In this document: positions 2,985 to 41,983 of the stretch, in pieces
Position numbering within the stretch: position 1 is the first letter of the stretch
How the letters are laid out: each line of letters begins with the position of its first letter
Virus record (IMG/VR): IMGVR_UViG_3300027898_000018
Coordinates: 1-43,189 of that record
Direction: 5' to 3' (one strand)
Length of the DNA stretch: 43,189 nucleotides
From: a virus
Position numbers and translations under genes: made by a program
Notes under the pieces: model-generated
What the model saw: only the letters and a program-made list of their open reading frames with translations
What the model was told of the DNA's origin: nothing
The model's database searches: none

Positions 2985-5123
2985 ATGTCGGCGATTCTCG
3001 ATTGTGCGCTAGAACTAGCGCAGCAAAAAGTGCGTTTCTTTCAGGTACGCCCCGACTCTAAACTTCCCGCCGTTGCGGATTTCTCCACCAAAGCCACCTC
3101 CGATCCCGAAAAACTTTACGAATACTTTGGGCACTCAAGCTTCAATAGCGGTATCGCTTGCGGAAAAGTTTCCGAGGGCGTTTACCTTGTTGGATTCGAT
3201 ATCGACAACAAAGACGGAAGGAACGGATATGAAACACTCGAGCTCTTGGCGGAACTGGGCGAAGAATTTCCCGAAACTTGGTCGCAGAAAACCCCAAGCG
3301 GCGGAGAGCATCGACTTTTCTGGTCGCCAGTTCCCATCCGTCAAGGGGCGAATGTACTCGGCGCAGGAATTGACCTACGTGGTGAAGGTGGGTATTTGGT
3401 TGGTCCGGGTTCTACTATTGGTGGAGTGCCTTATAGTGTGCTACGCCATCTTCCGATTGCTGTGTTTCCTGCTTGGGCGATAGCGAAGTGGGAGAAAAAG
3501 GCCACCGTTCACGCGCTTCCGAAATCCGCGGGCAAACCCGTTGCAAATCAAATCCTCGCGCTCAGCCAATCGGTAGCGTATCTGAAATCGCTCGAGCCCG
3601 TAACGGAGGGCGGCCGGAACGACGCTTGTTATAAAGCTGTTACCCAAATGCGCGATTTTGGACTTGACCAGAGCCAAATGCTCGACATGTTGGTCGCGCA
3701 TTGGAAGTGCGAACCGCTTCTTTCGGATGATGAAATGCTGGCCGTGATCGCCGGGGCCTTCAAGTATCCTAAAACGCCCGCCGGTATTGCCGCTCCTGAA
3801 AACCTTTTTCCCGTAGTTGAAGACCCCATCGAGAAAGATCCGCTCGATCTTATAAATGAAAATCATTTTTATTGCGCTTCGAATGGTATTTCACGGGTGT
3901 ATTGGGAAACCGAACGCCGCGGTAAATTTTATCTTGAGCCCTTCCCGGTTTATGTTTTCCATGAAAACCACGGCGCGGAAACCATGTTGCACCGGGGGAA
4001 AGAGGCTCCCGTTACTCAAGTGTGGATGAAATCTAAAAAGCGCCGTAGCTACGATCGATTGCGTTTTGATCCGGGGAATGGCACCGCACCAAACGAATAC
4101 AACACTTGGAAAGGCTTCGCCGTGAAGCCCAATACCGGCCCCATTGATCCGCGGGGAGAAAAAGCAGTAGAATTATTTTTCGAGCACTGCGAGAAGAATG
4201 TCTGCCGAAAGGACAAGGCCCTTTTCACCTGGCTTGTTACTTTCATGGCCCATATTTTCCAGCGCCCGGAAGATAAACCCGAGGTTTCCCTGGTGTTCCA
4301 AGGGCTCAAGGGCACAGGAAAAACTATTGTGTCCATGATCCTTGACCACCTTATCGGGGACAATTCGGTGATCGTGGCCGACAAAGCCCATGTCCTAGGC
4401 CACTTCAACGCCATGATGGAAGACAAAATTCTCGTCACCATGGACGAGGCCTTCTGGTCCGGAGATAAGCAAATCGAAGGCGTGCTGAAAGACCTGATTA
4501 CGGGTCGAACACGAATCATCACCAATAAGGGCGTGGATTCACGGGCCGCGGAAGTTTTTGACCGCATCATAATCATCGGCAACGAAAAATGGGCTATTCC
4601 TGCATCCTTCGATGAGCGCCGTTTTGCCGTGTTCAAGATGGGCGAAGACCGCCGCCAAGATCGCGCTTTCTTTGGTGCCATGAAAGACGGGCTTTTTAAA
4701 CATGGCGGCGCCGGCCGACTTATGGCCCGGTTCATGGCGTGGGATTTGTCCTCGGCGGATATATTTACCGCCCCACAAACCCGCGGCCTAGAAGAACAAA
4801 AGCTTCTTTCTATGGGCACCTTTGAACAATGGTGGTTCCAATGCCTGCAAGAGGGCCGGATATTAGGTCATGGGCTCGATGAATGGCTTCCGTATCTTTC
4901 CTGCCGTGATTTCTACGATGCTTTTGTTCGCCAAATGGATGCAGATAATAATCGATTTGCTAAGCCCACCCGAATCGGAGCCGGCATGATATTCAAGCAC
5001 CTATCGCCGCTAGCCGGAGGAAGTAAACGCCGCGATGGCAAGCGAGTGTATGAATTTCCGCCACTTGACATATTGCGTGCAGAATGGGACGAACAAACCG
5101 AATTTAAAAATGATTGGAACTAG
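2985..5123 (+). CDS. Primase-polymerase fused to SF3/D5-like helicase
   Basis: This 712-aa protein probably primes and unwinds DNA for the family A polymerase encoded just upstream. The N-terminal part looks like an archaeo-eukaryotic primase (Prim-Pol). It has VGFDIDNKDG (acidic metal-binding pair), then GGEHRLFW (catalytic His) and GIDLRGEGGYLVGPGS. The C-terminal part is an AAA+ SF3-like helicase of the DUF5906 type: Walker A GLKGTGKT near residues 440-447, Walker B ILVTMDEA near 482-489, and a probable arginine finger in DERRFAVF near 543. The start ATG follows AAGGA. It is the last rightward gene, and its TAG shares bases with the stop of the convergent lipoprotein gene. Confidence 0.92.
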   Translation: MSAILDCALELAQQKVRFFQVRPDSKLPAVADFSTKATSDPEKLYEYFGHSSFNSGIACGKVSEGVYLVGFDIDNKDGRNGYETLELLAELGEEFPETWSQKTPSGGEHRLFWSPVPIRQGANVLGAGIDLRGEGGYLVGPGSTIGGVPYSVLRHLPIAVFPAWAIAKWEKKATVHALPKSAGKPVANQILALSQSVAYLKSLEPVTEGGRNDACYKAVTQMRDFGLDQSQMLDMLVAHWKCEPLLSDDEMLAVIAGAFKYPKTPAGIAAPENLFPVVEDPIEKDPLDLINENHFYCASNGISRVYWETERRGKFYLEPFPVYVFHENHGAETMLHRGKEAPVTQVWMKSKKRRSYDRLRFDPGNGTAPNEYNTWKGFAVKPNTGPIDPRGEKAVELFFEHCEKNVCRKDKALFTWLVTFMAHIFQRPEDKPEVSLVFQGLKGTGKTIVSMILDHLIGDNSVIVADKAHVLGHFNAMMEDKILVTMDEAFWSGDKQIEGVLKDLITGRTRIITNKGVDSRAAEVFDRIIIIGNEKWAIPASFDERRFAVFKMGEDRRQDRAFFGAMKDGLFKHGGAGRLMARFMAWDLSSADIFTAPQTRGLEEQKLLSMGTFEQWWFQCLQEGRILGHGLDEWLPYLSCRDFYDAFVRQMDADNNRFAKPTRIGAGMIFKHLSPLAGGSKRRDGKRVYEFPPLDILRAEWDEQTEFKNDWN
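5120..5123. other. CTAG shared by two convergent stop codons
   Basis: The rightward primase-helicase gene ends with TAG at 5121-5123. The leftward lipoprotein gene ends with TAG read from 5122-5120. The two long transcription units therefore meet with no intergenic DNA, and I see no hairpin terminator here. Confidence 0.9.
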
Positions 5124-6499: not shown

Positions 6500-7036
6500 T
6501 TATTGCTCTTTACAGCTCATGAGCACGGAATAAATCTGCCCCGTAGCTTGAGTCTGAATGCCGGGCCAAGTGGTAGCCGCAAATGTCTGAGAAACGCCCA
6601 TCGGGTTATAGGTGTTGGCCGCCGTTCCGCTACCAAGGCAGTAGTTACCGGCGGCTCCGCAATAGTAGACACCGCCCGTCAGAGAGGACGCGCCGTTGGC
6701 GAACGTGGCCGTCGCCGACACAAGCTGCATGGTGTTGAACGCCTGACCTCCAGCAAACATCAGCGCGGTACAGTACGCGGTCTTGCCGCTCGTTACCTGA
6801 TAGGCGACACCATTCTTCCAGAAAGGATAGAAATCCCCAGCTCCTTCCGAAGCCGAACCCGCCATTACGGTAAAATATCCGCCAGTAGATCCGATATTAG
6901 ATTCCGGAATTACCAAATTTCCGGGATAAGTATCGGCTCCCCCTAGTGTTATGGACGGCACTCCCGAAGGAACGACCGCTTGCGCAGTGATGGAAACGAA
7001 TAAACTAAGGATGATAAGGAAAAAATTCACGCGCAA
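6500..7036 (-). CDS. Secreted small protein with conserved Cys, paralogue 1
   Basis: The 178-aa product starts with a clear Sec signal peptide: basic Arg, a hydrophobic FFLIILSLFVSI core, and cleavage expected after TAQA at residue 20. The mature protein begins VVPSGVP, as does its neighbour. Shared blocks include LGGA, YFTV.AG, FWKNGVAYQV.SGKTAYC, YYCG...YCLG.GTAA, PGI and a C-terminal SCKEQ. The Cys positions are conserved and could form disulfides after export. It is probably a beta-rich domain. No known family is recognised. It is one of five consecutive signal-peptide genes downstream of the virion tail fibre. A receptor- or surface-binding role is inferred from context. Confidence 0.82.
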   Translation of the reverse strand: MRVNFFLIILSLFVSITAQAVVPSGVPSITLGGADTYPGNLVIPESNIGSTGGYFTVMAGSASEGAGDFYPFWKNGVAYQVTSGKTAYCTALMFAGGQAFNTMQLVSATATFANGASSLTGGVYYCGAAGNYCLGSGTAANTYNPMGVSQTFAATTWPGIQTQATGQIYSVLMSCKEQ

Positions 7037-7039
7037 CTC

Positions 7040-7564
7040 CTATTGTTCTTTGCAATTTAGAAATACGGAATAAACCGTAGAGGCCTGGTTAACCTCAATT
7101 CCCGGATAAGTGAGGGCCGAGAACTGATAGGTGGCGCCCATTACGTTAAAGGCAAAGGCGGCGGTGCCCGTACCCAGGCAATAAGAGTTCGAACCCCCGC
7201 ACGAGTAAACGGCCGTCGCCGGCAGCGATCCGACGTTATTACTCCACGAGGTTGTGCTAGAAACAAGCTGATAAGTATTGAACGGGCTGGAGCTAGTGGA
7301 AGAGATGGAAACGCAGTAAGCTGTCTTTCCACTGCTTACTTGGTAGGCCGTGCCGTTCTTATAAAAGACGTAATACGTATTCGCCCCAGAACTCTGCGTC
7401 CCGGCATTGAGCGTAAAATATGTGCTTAAACTAGATTCAGCGATGGCCGCCCCGCCGGACACACCGTTTGCGCCCCCCAGCAACGCCTGAGGCACGCCAC
7501 TAGGCACTACGGCTAAAGCCGGAAGAGAGAATAGGCCGATAAGAAGTACTAGAACACGTTCCAT
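7040..7564 (-). CDS. Secreted small protein with conserved Cys, paralogue 2
   Basis: The 174-aa product has a signal peptide (MERVLVLLIGLFSLPALA, cleavage after residue 18) and the same mature start VVPSGVP as the next gene. It shares the FYKNGTAYQV.SGKTAYC core, the Cys-X-X-X-X-X-X-Cys-Leu-Gly block and the CKEQ end. The pair arose by tandem duplication and has diverged considerably. The start overlaps the 3' end of the fibre gene at 7549 by 16 bases, with GGGAG upstream, so it is coupled to it. Co-translation with fibres suggests a common exported assembly or alternative tips, which is inference. Confidence 0.82.
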   Translation of the reverse strand: MERVLVLLIGLFSLPALAVVPSGVPQALLGGANGVSGGAAIAESSLSTYFTLNAGTQSSGANTYYVFYKNGTAYQVSSGKTAYCVSISSTSSSPFNTYQLVSSTTSWSNNVGSLPATAVYSCGGSNSYCLGTGTAAFAFNVMGATYQFSALTYPGIEVNQASTVYSVFLNCKEQ

Positions 7565-25794: not shown

Positions 25795-26736
25795 TTAAAT
25801 ATTTACCGTGCCCTGGTAAGCCTGCTCGTGGAGCCGCTGCCAGGTAGCTTTGGCTTCGGCTTCGCCGTTCATTAAACGCTGGCCGAAATCTTTATCCGCC
25901 ATGAGCTCGGAAATCCTTGATTTGGCCGAAGCGGGCTCGAGCGGCGTATTCGCCCGTTGACCTTGGACGAAAGCGCTTTCCCCGACCGATTTTCCAATCG
26001 AGGCGAGCAGTTTCATGGTGTCGGCGTGTCCAAGAGCGGCCGAGAGAGCATCGATTTTTTTCGCATCCAGCCCCATTCGGCGCGCGGCGTCGGCGGCGAT
26101 GTTCCGATTGCTATCGTAGGCGGCGCCCCACTCTTTCTGGAGGGCGGTTTGCTGGTCGTTGAAAGCGGCGGTGGCTTGGGCCTTTTGCGCCTCCATTACC
26201 TTCTGGATATAGGCGCCATCGGTCGCGGCCAACTTTTGCGCTTGCGCTTTGGTGAGCCCCATTTCATGGGCGGCTTTGAGGAAACCCTCGAGGCGCGCGG
26301 CGTCGCCGCCCTCTTTAGGCATTTCGATTCCGTAATCCTTGGGATCTTTCGGGGCGCCGATACGCTCGTAAATGGCTCGGCCTTCCGCCGTGAGCGCCCC
26401 TTTGTCATCGTAGAAACTCTCCGGTAACTTGAGAAGCCGATCTTGCGGCACGCCTTGGAGCTTCTCGAGGTTGCGATACGCATCGGCGAGGGAACTCGGG
26501 TCTTTGAAGCCCTTATTTCCGAGGTAACCTTTTAAATCGTCGTTGAACCCGGCCATCCAAGAGCCCGGATTCACCGTTTCGGTGGTGGCGGGAGCCGCGC
26601 CGGTAGTAGTGGCCGGCGCGGCCTGGGTGGACGTGGCCGACATAGCGGCACTGGTGGATGCGGGCGTAGCGGGCGCCGCAGGTGACGTGGCAGTAGCAGG
26701 CGTGGCGGGTGCAGCGGGGGTCGCGGTGGTGCTCAT
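25795..26736 (-). CDS. Scaffolding protein
   Basis: This 313-aa protein is probably the internal capsid scaffold. The first 55 residues are a low-complexity Ala/Thr/Pro/Ser region. A structured part follows (SWMAGFNDDLKGYLGNKGF, PSSLADAYRNLEKLQGVP, RLLKLPESFYDDKG, PKDYGIEMP) that is typical of phage scaffolds located before the capsid gene. The second half is charged and helical (AQKAQATAAFNDQQTALQKEW) and ends with a basic segment. It lies between the Bbp19-like gene and the capsid gene. Confidence 0.87.
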   Translation of the reverse strand: MSTTATPAAPATPATATSPAAPATPASTSAAMSATSTQAAPATTTGAAPATTETVNPGSWMAGFNDDLKGYLGNKGFKDPSSLADAYRNLEKLQGVPQDRLLKLPESFYDDKGALTAEGRAIYERIGAPKDPKDYGIEMPKEGGDAARLEGFLKAAHEMGLTKAQAQKLAATDGAYIQKVMEAQKAQATAAFNDQQTALQKEWGAAYDSNRNIAADAARRMGLDAKKIDALSAALGHADTMKLLASIGKSVGESAFVQGQRANTPLEPASAKSRISELMADKDFGQRLMNGEAEAKATWQRLHEQAYQGTVNI

Positions 26737-33066: not shown

Positions 33067-33106
33067 GCGGCGATAAAACTCCAACCAGTTTTATCGCCGC
33101 TTCTTT
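33067..33106 (+). terminator. Very strong rho-independent terminator
   Basis: GCGGCGATAAAACT (33067-33080) and AGTTTTATCGCCGC (33087-33100) form a perfect 14-bp stem with a CCAACC loop. TTCTTTT follows. It closes the 123-aa gene and isolates the downstream regulatory region. Confidence 0.9.
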
Positions 33107-33239: not shown

Positions 33240-33356
33240 TTCTAGTTGGCAGTTGGCAAATTAGTTGTACTGCGTTAAGTTATTGATATAACTACTATAA
33301 TACAACTATGACTACTAGAACAAGTAAATAGTAGTATTGAGCCATAGCAGTAGTGA

Positions 33357-33391
33357 TATTTAAATTTAATTATAGCCATTTAAATTTAATT
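33357..33391. repeat. Tandem ATTTAAATTTAATT motifs
   Basis: ATTTAAATTTAATT is present at 33358-33371 and again at 33378-33391, 20 bases apart, or about two helical turns. A third copy stands at 31965-31978 in the divergent promoter region. I see no others in the window. Confidence 0.75.
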
Positions 33392-33445
33392 AATATAGTG
33401 ATACAGCGATCTCTATTACTGGCGACTGGAATAAGGTTGTCGCAG

Positions 33446-33474
33446 TTGGCATAGTTGTTCTTGTCAACTATTAT
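33446..33474 (+). promoter_or_regulatory. Rightward middle promoter with overlapping palindrome
   Basis: TTGGCA (33446-33451) and TATTAT (33469-33474) are 17 bases apart, five of six matches each. The spacer holds the inverted repeat TAGTTG-TTCTTGT-CAACTA, reaching into the -10 box, which is a typical operator layout. It would drive the replication genes from 33494 onward. Confidence 0.7.
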
Positions 33475-33493
33475 GTGGAGTTAATTCAATAAG

Positions 33494-33814
33494 ATGAGTC
33501 ACTTTAAAAATCCAGCAACTAGCCAGCAACTAGCTCAGCAACTAGAGCCCGACGATGTACGCGCCCAAGTTCAAGAGATGCGCGCCTTAGAACCGGTGGA
33601 AAAACACATACGGAGGCTTCGATATCATGGGTACCTCCAATTTTCTTGGGGTCAATTTAGTCGCCGCGAGAGGGTTTGGGGGTTTCTCACAGTTTTTAAG
33701 GGTAAAGAACAGTTTTTCACTTCTTTAGAGTCCTTTGAAGCGTTTTGTTTCACCAACGAAATCCCGCTTCTTCCCCCCGGAACTTCAAAGAGCGTTCGTC
33801 TCAAGAACGAATAA
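33494..33814 (+). CDS. Unknown 106-aa protein
   Basis: No family is recognised. The N-terminus is Gln-rich (NPATSQQLAQQLEPDD) because it is encoded by the three CAGCAACTAG repeats. A charged segment (EKHIRRLRYHGYLQFSWGQFSRRERVWGFLTVF) and an end SLESFEAFCFTNEIPLLPPG follow. It is the first gene after the repeat array and promoter. The overlap of repeats with coding sequence may mean that the start of this protein is shaped by a DNA element. Confidence 0.65.
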   Translation: MSHFKNPATSQQLAQQLEPDDVRAQVQEMRALEPVEKHIRRLRYHGYLQFSWGQFSRRERVWGFLTVFKGKEQFFTSLESFEAFCFTNEIPLLPPGTSKSVRLKNE

Positions 33815-33854: not shown

Positions 33855-34361
33855 ATGGCCCAACAATTAATTCTCGGAATTGATCCCGGTTTCAGCGGTG
33901 CGCTTGCTTGGTACTGCCCAGAGGATAAGCGGCTTATAGCCGCTGTGCCTATGCCCCTCAAACCGCCTTCCGCCATAGCGCCAGGGGAGCGGCAACGGGC
34001 GGAGATTGACCCAATCCGCCTCGCACAGATTATCCATAGGGCTGGGGTGCCGAGGATTGCCGTGGTCGAAAAGGTTTCCGCGAGCCCGCAGATGGGGGTG
34101 ACCTCCGCATTTCGATTCGGCGAGGGCCACGGAATCATCCTGGGCGTTCTGGCCGCAATGGGGGTGCCGGTGCGGCCAGCGTGGCCGTCGGTGTGGAAAT
34201 CGGGTCTGGGGCTATCGAGTGATAAGAAGGCCTCGTTAAAACTCGCTGTGGAGCTTTTTCCGGAGTGGAGCGTAACTTTCACCCGGGATGCCCGCTCCGC
34301 GGATCTCTCGGAGGCCGCGCTTTTGGCCTATTTTGGGGTGCGGTTCTTACCCACAGAATAA
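33855..34361 (+). CDS. RuvC-like Holliday junction resolvase
   Basis: This 168-aa protein has an RNase H-fold resolvase pattern. The first catalytic Asp is D10 in ILGIDPGFSGALAW, the Glu is E72 in IAVVEKV, and acidic residues are found near the end in TRDARSADLSEAALLAYF (D145, D150, E153). Phage resolvases of this type cut branched replication intermediates before packaging. Length is normal for RuvC-like phage enzymes. The ribosome site is weak. It stands early in the replication and recombination unit. Confidence 0.9.
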   Translation: MAQQLILGIDPGFSGALAWYCPEDKRLIAAVPMPLKPPSAIAPGERQRAEIDPIRLAQIIHRAGVPRIAVVEKVSASPQMGVTSAFRFGEGHGIILGVLAAMGVPVRPAWPSVWKSGLGLSSDKKASLKLAVELFPEWSVTFTRDARSADLSEAALLAYFGVRFLPTE

Positions 34362-41743: not shown

Positions 41744-41983
41744 ATGAAGTTTTCCACCATGGTAAGAGAACGACGCATTAAGCAGGGGCTAATAATTAAA
41801 GTCCTTGCCGAGCGCGCCGGCTTTCACCCCTCCTACATTTCCTTGGTGGAGCACGGTAAGAAAAACCCCCGCATTGGTAACGCGATCCGTATTGCAAAAG
41901 CGTTGAATATCAATGTGGGGGAACTTTCCAAAATCGACGAGCGGTTCAAAAAATCGGGCGTCGTGAAAAAGCTGTATGGGTAG
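41744..41983 (+). CDS. XRE-family transcriptional regulator
   Basis: This 79-aa protein is almost only a helix-turn-helix domain of the Cro/CI type: TMVRERRIKQGLIIKVLAERAG (helices 1-2), FHPSYISLVEHGKKNPRIG (recognition helix and turn), then NAIRIAKALNINVGELSKI. There is no cleavage or dimerisation domain, so a Cro-like repressor or antirepressor is more likely than CI. It could bind the CAACTA/TAGTTG sites near 33.24-33.55 kb, a hypothesis from motif content alone. The 3' part is repeated at 1-149. Confidence 0.88.
   Translation: MKFSTMVRERRIKQGLIIKVLAERAGFHPSYISLVEHGKKNPRIGNAIRIAKALNINVGELSKIDERFKKSGVVKKLYG

What the first reader, a model, noticed from the sequence alone, without database searches (positions are those of the whole stretch)
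33240..33545. Iteron-like CAACTA array with phased CAGCAACTAG repeats
Eight copies of one hexamer (both orientations) occur in about 300 bases, where roughly 0.15 would be expected with even base use. Three are 10-mers spaced 11 and 12 bases, one turn of DNA. Others form inverted repeats of 6-8 bp, one inside the spacer of a strong promoter. The region is AT-rich and lies between a strong terminator and the replication genes. It could be the replication origin, an operator array or both.
Basis: partly seen in the sequence, partly recalled or inferred. Interest (0 to 1): 0.72.

Follow-up and report, generated by a model that had tools for sequence, protein, structure and literature searches.

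The report
Probable phage replication start site
A cluster of short DNA repeats around an AT-rich stretch is probably where this phage starts copying its genome, and related phages show that the site keeps its place, and often its layout, while the repeat letters differ from phage to phage.

Summary
CAACTA occurs eight times in about 300 bp (33243-33544), ten times as CAACTR; no other hexamer in the window is as clustered. Two corrections: the three phased CAGCAACTAG copies lie inside an ORF (33494-33814), not in noncoding DNA, and the 'strong promoter' is no better than chance.

The letters are not conserved. In the nearest relative (Prim-Pol 61% identical) the same place carries CTATGGC repeats. 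What is conserved is position and, in many relatives, layout. In 29 phage contigs of this family (window included), the stretch upstream of the RuvC gene is enriched for short-repeat arrays and AT-rich DNA (combined p about 1e-23 and 1e-19). In the clearest cases repeats flank an AT-rich core, as in published PICI/SaPI origins.

The phage's Prim-Pol helicase is modelled with the fold of the NrS-1 and SaPI5 primase-helicases. Its winged-helix-like C-terminus differs strongly between the two nearest relatives. The XRE protein is 91% identical there with an unchanged recognition helix, so it is an unlikely reader.

Best explanation: an iteron-type replication origin, perhaps doubling as the operon's regulatory region. 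Binding and origin activity are untested.

The parts
33067..33100 (+). Terminator-like hairpin (14 pairs) closing the upstream small-gene unit
33243..33267 (-). Left repeat set: TAGTTG 33243, CAGTTG 33250, TAGTTG 33262
33303..33308 (+). Left repeat CAACTA, forming an 8-bp inverted repeat with 33262-33269
33341..33405 (.). AT-rich core with GCCATAGCA and two ATTTAAATTTAA copies; partly conserved in G002; lowest GC of the window
33443..33470 (.). Right repeats CAGTTG 33443, TAGTTG 33452, CAACTA 33465; the last two form the inverted repeat TAGTTG-N7-CAACTA
33446..33474 (+). Promoter-like site TTGGCA-17-TATTAT overlapped by the inverted repeat; not above chance as a match
33513..33545 (+). Three phased CAGCAACTAG copies (spacing 11, 12) inside ORF 33494-33814
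33494..33814 (+). Unknown 106-aa ORF; orthologue only in G002 and its identical copy, without the repeat-bearing N-terminus; start codon uncertain (in-frame ATG also at 33578)
33855..34361 (+). RuvC-like Holliday junction resolvase, the anchor gene for comparing relatives
2985..5123 (+). Prim-Pol / SF3 (DUF5906) helicase with winged-helix-like C-terminus; proposed reader of the repeats
41744..41983 (+). XRE-type regulator; unlikely reader because it is 91% identical in G002 while the motif differs

Best explanation
The cluster is an iteron-type replication origin. Two sets of CAACTR repeats flank an AT-rich core at the head of the replication operon. The phage Prim-Pol helicase (2985-5123) binds the repeats, most likely with its winged-helix-like C-terminus, assembles as a ring, melts the AT core, unwinds and primes, and the phage PolA-type polymerase extends. 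The inverted repeat TAGTTG-N7-CAACTA over the promoter-like site could let the same protein repress the operon, as iteron-plasmid Rep proteins do (from general knowledge). Shown by sequence or model: repeats, AT core, position in relatives, layout in the clearest relatives, predicted initiator fold.
For: Repeat cluster far above chance at the window's GC minimum. The 2.6 kb upstream of RuvC is enriched for repeat arrays and AT minima in 29 family contigs (repeat 20/29 and joint 22/29 at p<=0.1; Fisher 1.2e-23 for repeats, 2.2e-19 for AT). Repeats-AT core-repeats plan with different motifs in G005, G013, G010, G019, G024, G027; G005 also has two TTATCCACA DnaA-box-like sites. Prim-Pol model matches NrS-1 CTR (Z 26.3) and SaPI5 primase-helicase (Z 19). 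Its C-terminal part is only 39% identical between window and G002, against 84% for the primase domain, while the motif changed. PICI origins have two iteron sets flanking an AT-rich region (PMC6092414); SaPI Rep reads iterons by its C-terminal domain (PMC7581432).
Against: No binding, coverage or replication data. CAACTR itself is not conserved. The CAACTR array is weaker than most in the family. The C-terminal part of Prim-Pol is variable across the whole family, so its divergence is not specific evidence. Seven of 29 contigs show no joint signal, and some arrays in the interval look like coding repeats (G018) or lie on one side of the core (G016, G038). No DnaA box was seen in the window region.
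Confidence: 0.6

Rival explanations
1. Operator array only: a phage regulator (the XRE at 41744, the unknown ORF product, or a host protein) binds CAACTR sites to control the early operon; it is not an origin.
For: Inverted repeat over a promoter-like site at the head of the operon. Many relatives have a small HTH-like gene between the array and RuvC, and in MW202898 CAACTA ends form an operator-like palindrome. In G028 a GTTGCAT tandem array lies just upstream of that gene.
Against: XRE is 91% identical in G002 with an unchanged recognition helix, although the motif there is CTATGGC. Arrays occur without the HTH-like gene in the window, G002, G005 and G032, and in G010, G016, G019 and G024 they lie 1 kb or more upstream of it. 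Operators do not need an AT-rich core between two repeat sets.
Confidence: 0.25
2. The repeats are a chance or decaying repeat cluster, and the family signal reflects AT-rich intergenic DNA and unrelated regulatory sites at a variable operon head.
For: Motifs share no sequence; several were chosen by scanning; the contigs are related, so the combined p overstates independence. The promoter match is at chance level.
Against: Eight copies exceed all simulations, one of three 10-mers is out of the coding frame, and several relatives have very strong symmetric arrays (G005, G013, G024).
Confidence: 0.1
3. Integrase arm sites of an attachment site.
For: G012 and G014 have TGCGACC arrays beside a tRNA-like sequence, which read as arm sites.
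Against: The window has no tyrosine integrase (PF00589), and the G012/G014 arrays lie about 12.5 kb downstream of RuvC, not upstream.
Confidence: 0.03

Closest known systems
PICI/SaPI pri-rep-ori origins (PMC6092414, PMC7581432)
   Same: Two sets of short repeats flanking an AT-rich region; element-specific repeat sequence; primase-helicase with the SaPI5 fold.
   Different: Found in full-size phages with their own PolA, SSB and virion genes; the site is upstream of the operon, about 12.7 kb from the Prim-Pol gene, not just downstream of rep; the primase is of the archaeo-eukaryotic Prim-Pol type.
Phage NrS-1 Prim-Pol helicase (PMC8775771)
   Same: Closest solved fold for the helicase half (6k9c, Z 26.3); NrS-1 recognises a specific 8-nt template sequence.
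   Different: Sequence identity only about 14%; there recognition is assigned to the helix-bundle region; NrS-1 has no separate replicative polymerase, this phage has a PolA.
pRN1 ORF904 replicon and the BIP-1 proposal (PMC4234260)
   Same: Prim-Pol plus SF3 helicase plus C-terminal winged helix.
   Different: There a stem-loop 3' of the replication gene is the (proposed) origin; here phased repeats upstream of the operon, and no strong inverted repeat 3' of Prim-Pol.
Iteron plasmid and lambda-type origins (general knowledge; PMC4980987 as review)
   Same: Phased repeats next to AT-rich DNA; repeats may run into coding sequence, as in lambda O; inverted copy over a promoter.
   Different: No DnaA box in the window region, no Rep_3 or O-like initiator recognised; initiator is a helicase that can load itself.

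Membership tests
[quoted passage not shown]
   Window sites on both sides of the 17% GC core; orientation less regular than in G005 or G013
PICI/SaPI-type origin | initiator is a primase-helicase of the SaPI Rep fold | tested here: met
   Model against 7om0/7ola Z 19, 358 residues
PICI/SaPI-type origin | origin directly downstream of the rep gene | tested here: not met
   Array lies upstream of the operon
PICI/SaPI-type origin | Rep-dependent replication and binding to the repeats | not testable with these tools
   needs bench work
pRN1/BIP-1 stem-loop origin | large stem-loop 3' of the replication gene | tested here: not met
   No exact inverted repeat of 9 bp or more within 600 bp in window, G002, G005 and most others; window fold z -1.3 and 0.1. 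Imperfect stems could be missed
CI/Cro-type operator region | regulator whose specificity follows the operator motif | tested here: not met
   XRE 91% identical, recognition helix unchanged, motif replaced
Iteron plasmid origin | DnaA box next to iterons | tested here: not met
   None found by eye or scan in window region; two in G005
attP with arm sites | tyrosine integrase in the phage | tested here: not met
   PF00589 absent; record may be incomplete

The most novel reading that the evidence does not exclude
A whole family of Prim-Pol podoviruses uses repeats-AT core-repeats origins at a fixed gene position whose repeat sequence is rewritten in nearly every lineage, together with the reading domain of the primase-helicase, giving each phage a private origin (incompatibility or exclusion groups).
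Probability: 0.38. Interest if true: 0.66.

Novelty: new variant of a known kind. Interest (0 to 1): 0.52.

Why it matters
Origins of phages with Prim-Pol/SF3 replication proteins are mostly unmapped, and the published proposal for one of them (BIP-1) is a stem-loop. A recurring repeats-AT core-repeats site at a fixed gene position gives a testable origin for a large uncultured phage family and for the cultivable phage BPP-1, and a natural set of candidate initiator-site pairs for studying how such specificity changes.

Tried and rejected
Relatives of the unknown ORF were found only in G002 and its identical copy L015; none in genome contigs. DNA similarity to known phages: only a short match in the RuvC gene. 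GC skew: no switch at the site. Rfam: no family. CAACTA as a motif shared by the family: rejected; among relatives only MW202898 shows it clustered, in an operator-like palindrome. The first scan of loci had the wrong orientation for minus-strand hits and was redone. Fold of the unknown ORF: only partly confident and no PDB match below E 0.001. The NrS-1 origin paper is not held, so its repeat sequence could not be checked. Stem-loop 3' of Prim-Pol: not found.

Full report
The window is one IMG/VR phage record of 43,189 bases. Its replication genes run on the + strand from 33494 over the record's end to 5123: unknown ORF, RuvC-like resolvase, SNF2-like helicase, DUF2800 nuclease, Gp2.5-like SSB, XRE regulator, PolA, Prim-Pol helicase. 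Terminase and virion genes are on the - strand. In relative G002 the SSB, XRE, PolA and Prim-Pol genes follow each other without the break that the window's ends introduce, so the gene order is best read as circular.

Eight CAACTA sites lie at 33243-33544. With the local composition 0.37 are expected, and no simulation exceeded 3. A whole-window test that allows for any hexamer gives a best null of 7 in 200 simulations, against 8 observed. Two CAACTG sites make ten CAACTR sites. The three phased CAGCAACTAG copies are inside the 5' end of ORF 33494-33814; one is out of frame with the other two, so the repeat is a DNA-level feature. The promoter-like site is not above chance.

The nearest relative with the region is G002 (L012; Prim-Pol 61%). 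It has an orthologue of the unknown ORF (60% identical) that lacks the Gln-rich start holding the repeats. Its intergenic region aligns in blocks, including AGCCATAGCA and ATTTAAATTTAA, folds strongly (z -5.3, against -3.4 in the window), and carries CTATGGC repeats in place of CAACTR.

More distant relatives were collected with a Prim-Pol alignment and aligned by their RuvC gene. Directly upstream of RuvC, G005 has two TTATCCACA sites, then GGTCAC repeats at spacings 6 and 12, an AT core, and inverted copies. G013 (TGGGAC), G010 (TGTCCA), G019 (GTTCTA), G024 (ATTCTA) and G027 (AACTGG) show similar plans, each with its own motif. Across 29 contigs, window included, the 2.6 kb upstream of RuvC is enriched in repeat-array score and AT minimum (Fisher 1.2e-23 and 2.2e-19; joint 22 of 29 at p<=0.1).

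Limits of that test: the contigs are related, so the combined p overstates independence; motifs were chosen by scanning, some by eye; some arrays in the interval (for example G018 at -1.7 kb, with a 33-bp period) are probably coding repeats; seven contigs show no joint signal; and in G016 and G038 the repeats sit on one side of the core only. G012 and G014 instead have arrays beside a tRNA-like sequence far downstream, which read as integrase arm sites and were not counted as origins.

What reads the repeats? XRE is 91% identical between window and G002, with its seven differences at residues 6-27 and 64 and none in the putative recognition helix, although the motif changed completely. Prim-Pol diverges unevenly: primase domain 84%, AAA part 67%, helical region 43%, C-terminal winged-helix-like part 39%. 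Its model (pLDDT 88) matches the NrS-1 C-terminal region (Z 26.3) and the SaPI5 primase-helicase (Z 19), and its N-terminus the pRN1 Prim-Pol (Z 14-15). NrS-1 recognises an 8-nt template sequence with the helix-bundle region needed for priming (PMC8775771), so the helical region is a second candidate reader. The C-terminus is variable across the whole family, so its divergence is suggestive, not proof.

Known systems. [quoted passage not shown] This is the closest working analogue. The site here differs in lying upstream of the operon. The pRN1 study proposed stem-loops 3' of the replication gene for BIP-1-like phages (PMC4234260); a search for inverted repeats there found nothing in the window, G002 or G005 and little in the others. 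In BPP-1, a near-identical phage of BIP-1, the GC minimum of the genome holds (GCCTCGTTT)x2, an AT-rich stretch and (AAACGAGGC)x2 at 26609-26708, about 470 bp beyond the 3' end of its primase gene and across the small gene bbp28. That offers a cultivable test.

Conclusion. The most likely reading is an iteron-type replication origin that may also regulate the operon (0.60). An operator array without origin function is the main rival (0.25). Nothing here measures binding or replication.

Noticed in passing
L190 (NC_005357, Bordetella phage BPP-1) 26609-26708: Two 9-bp repeats GCCTCGTTT, an AT-rich stretch and two inverted copies AAACGAGGC at the genome's GC minimum, near the 3' end of the primase gene: a candidate origin in a cultivable phage.
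   Followed up: partly
L111/L132 (G005), upstream of RuvC: Two perfect TTATCCACA sites 12 bp apart next to a GGTCAC array around an AT core, the most plasmid-like candidate origin in the family.
   Followed up: partly
G012 and G014, about 12.5 kb downstream of RuvC (L153, L154): TGCGACCAG arrays beside a tRNA-like sequence, probably integrase arm sites of an attachment site.
   Followed up: no
G028, G027, G013, G034, G010, G016, G019, G024, G026, G029, G038, upstream of RuvC: A conserved small protein with the pattern YRWxYP..GTGGxIP, HTH-like by eye, precedes RuvC in many relatives; one of two tested had no PHROG match, the other a weak one to a transcriptional regulator. Absent from the window and G002.
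   Followed up: partly
L016 (MW202898) 4040-4080: 13-bp-arm palindrome TAGTTGTTGATAATTTATCAACAACTA, operator-like, in a relative that has an integrase nearby.
   Followed up: partly
window 6500-7036 and 7040-7564 (-): Two adjacent similar ORFs with signal-peptide-like starts and matching motifs (AVVPSGVP, CKEQ end), probably a tandem duplication.
   Followed up: no
L010 (IMGVR_UViG_3300006086_000023): A 30.6-kb contig with a 100% identical Prim-Pol, apparently the same phage in another record, without the array region.
   Followed up: no
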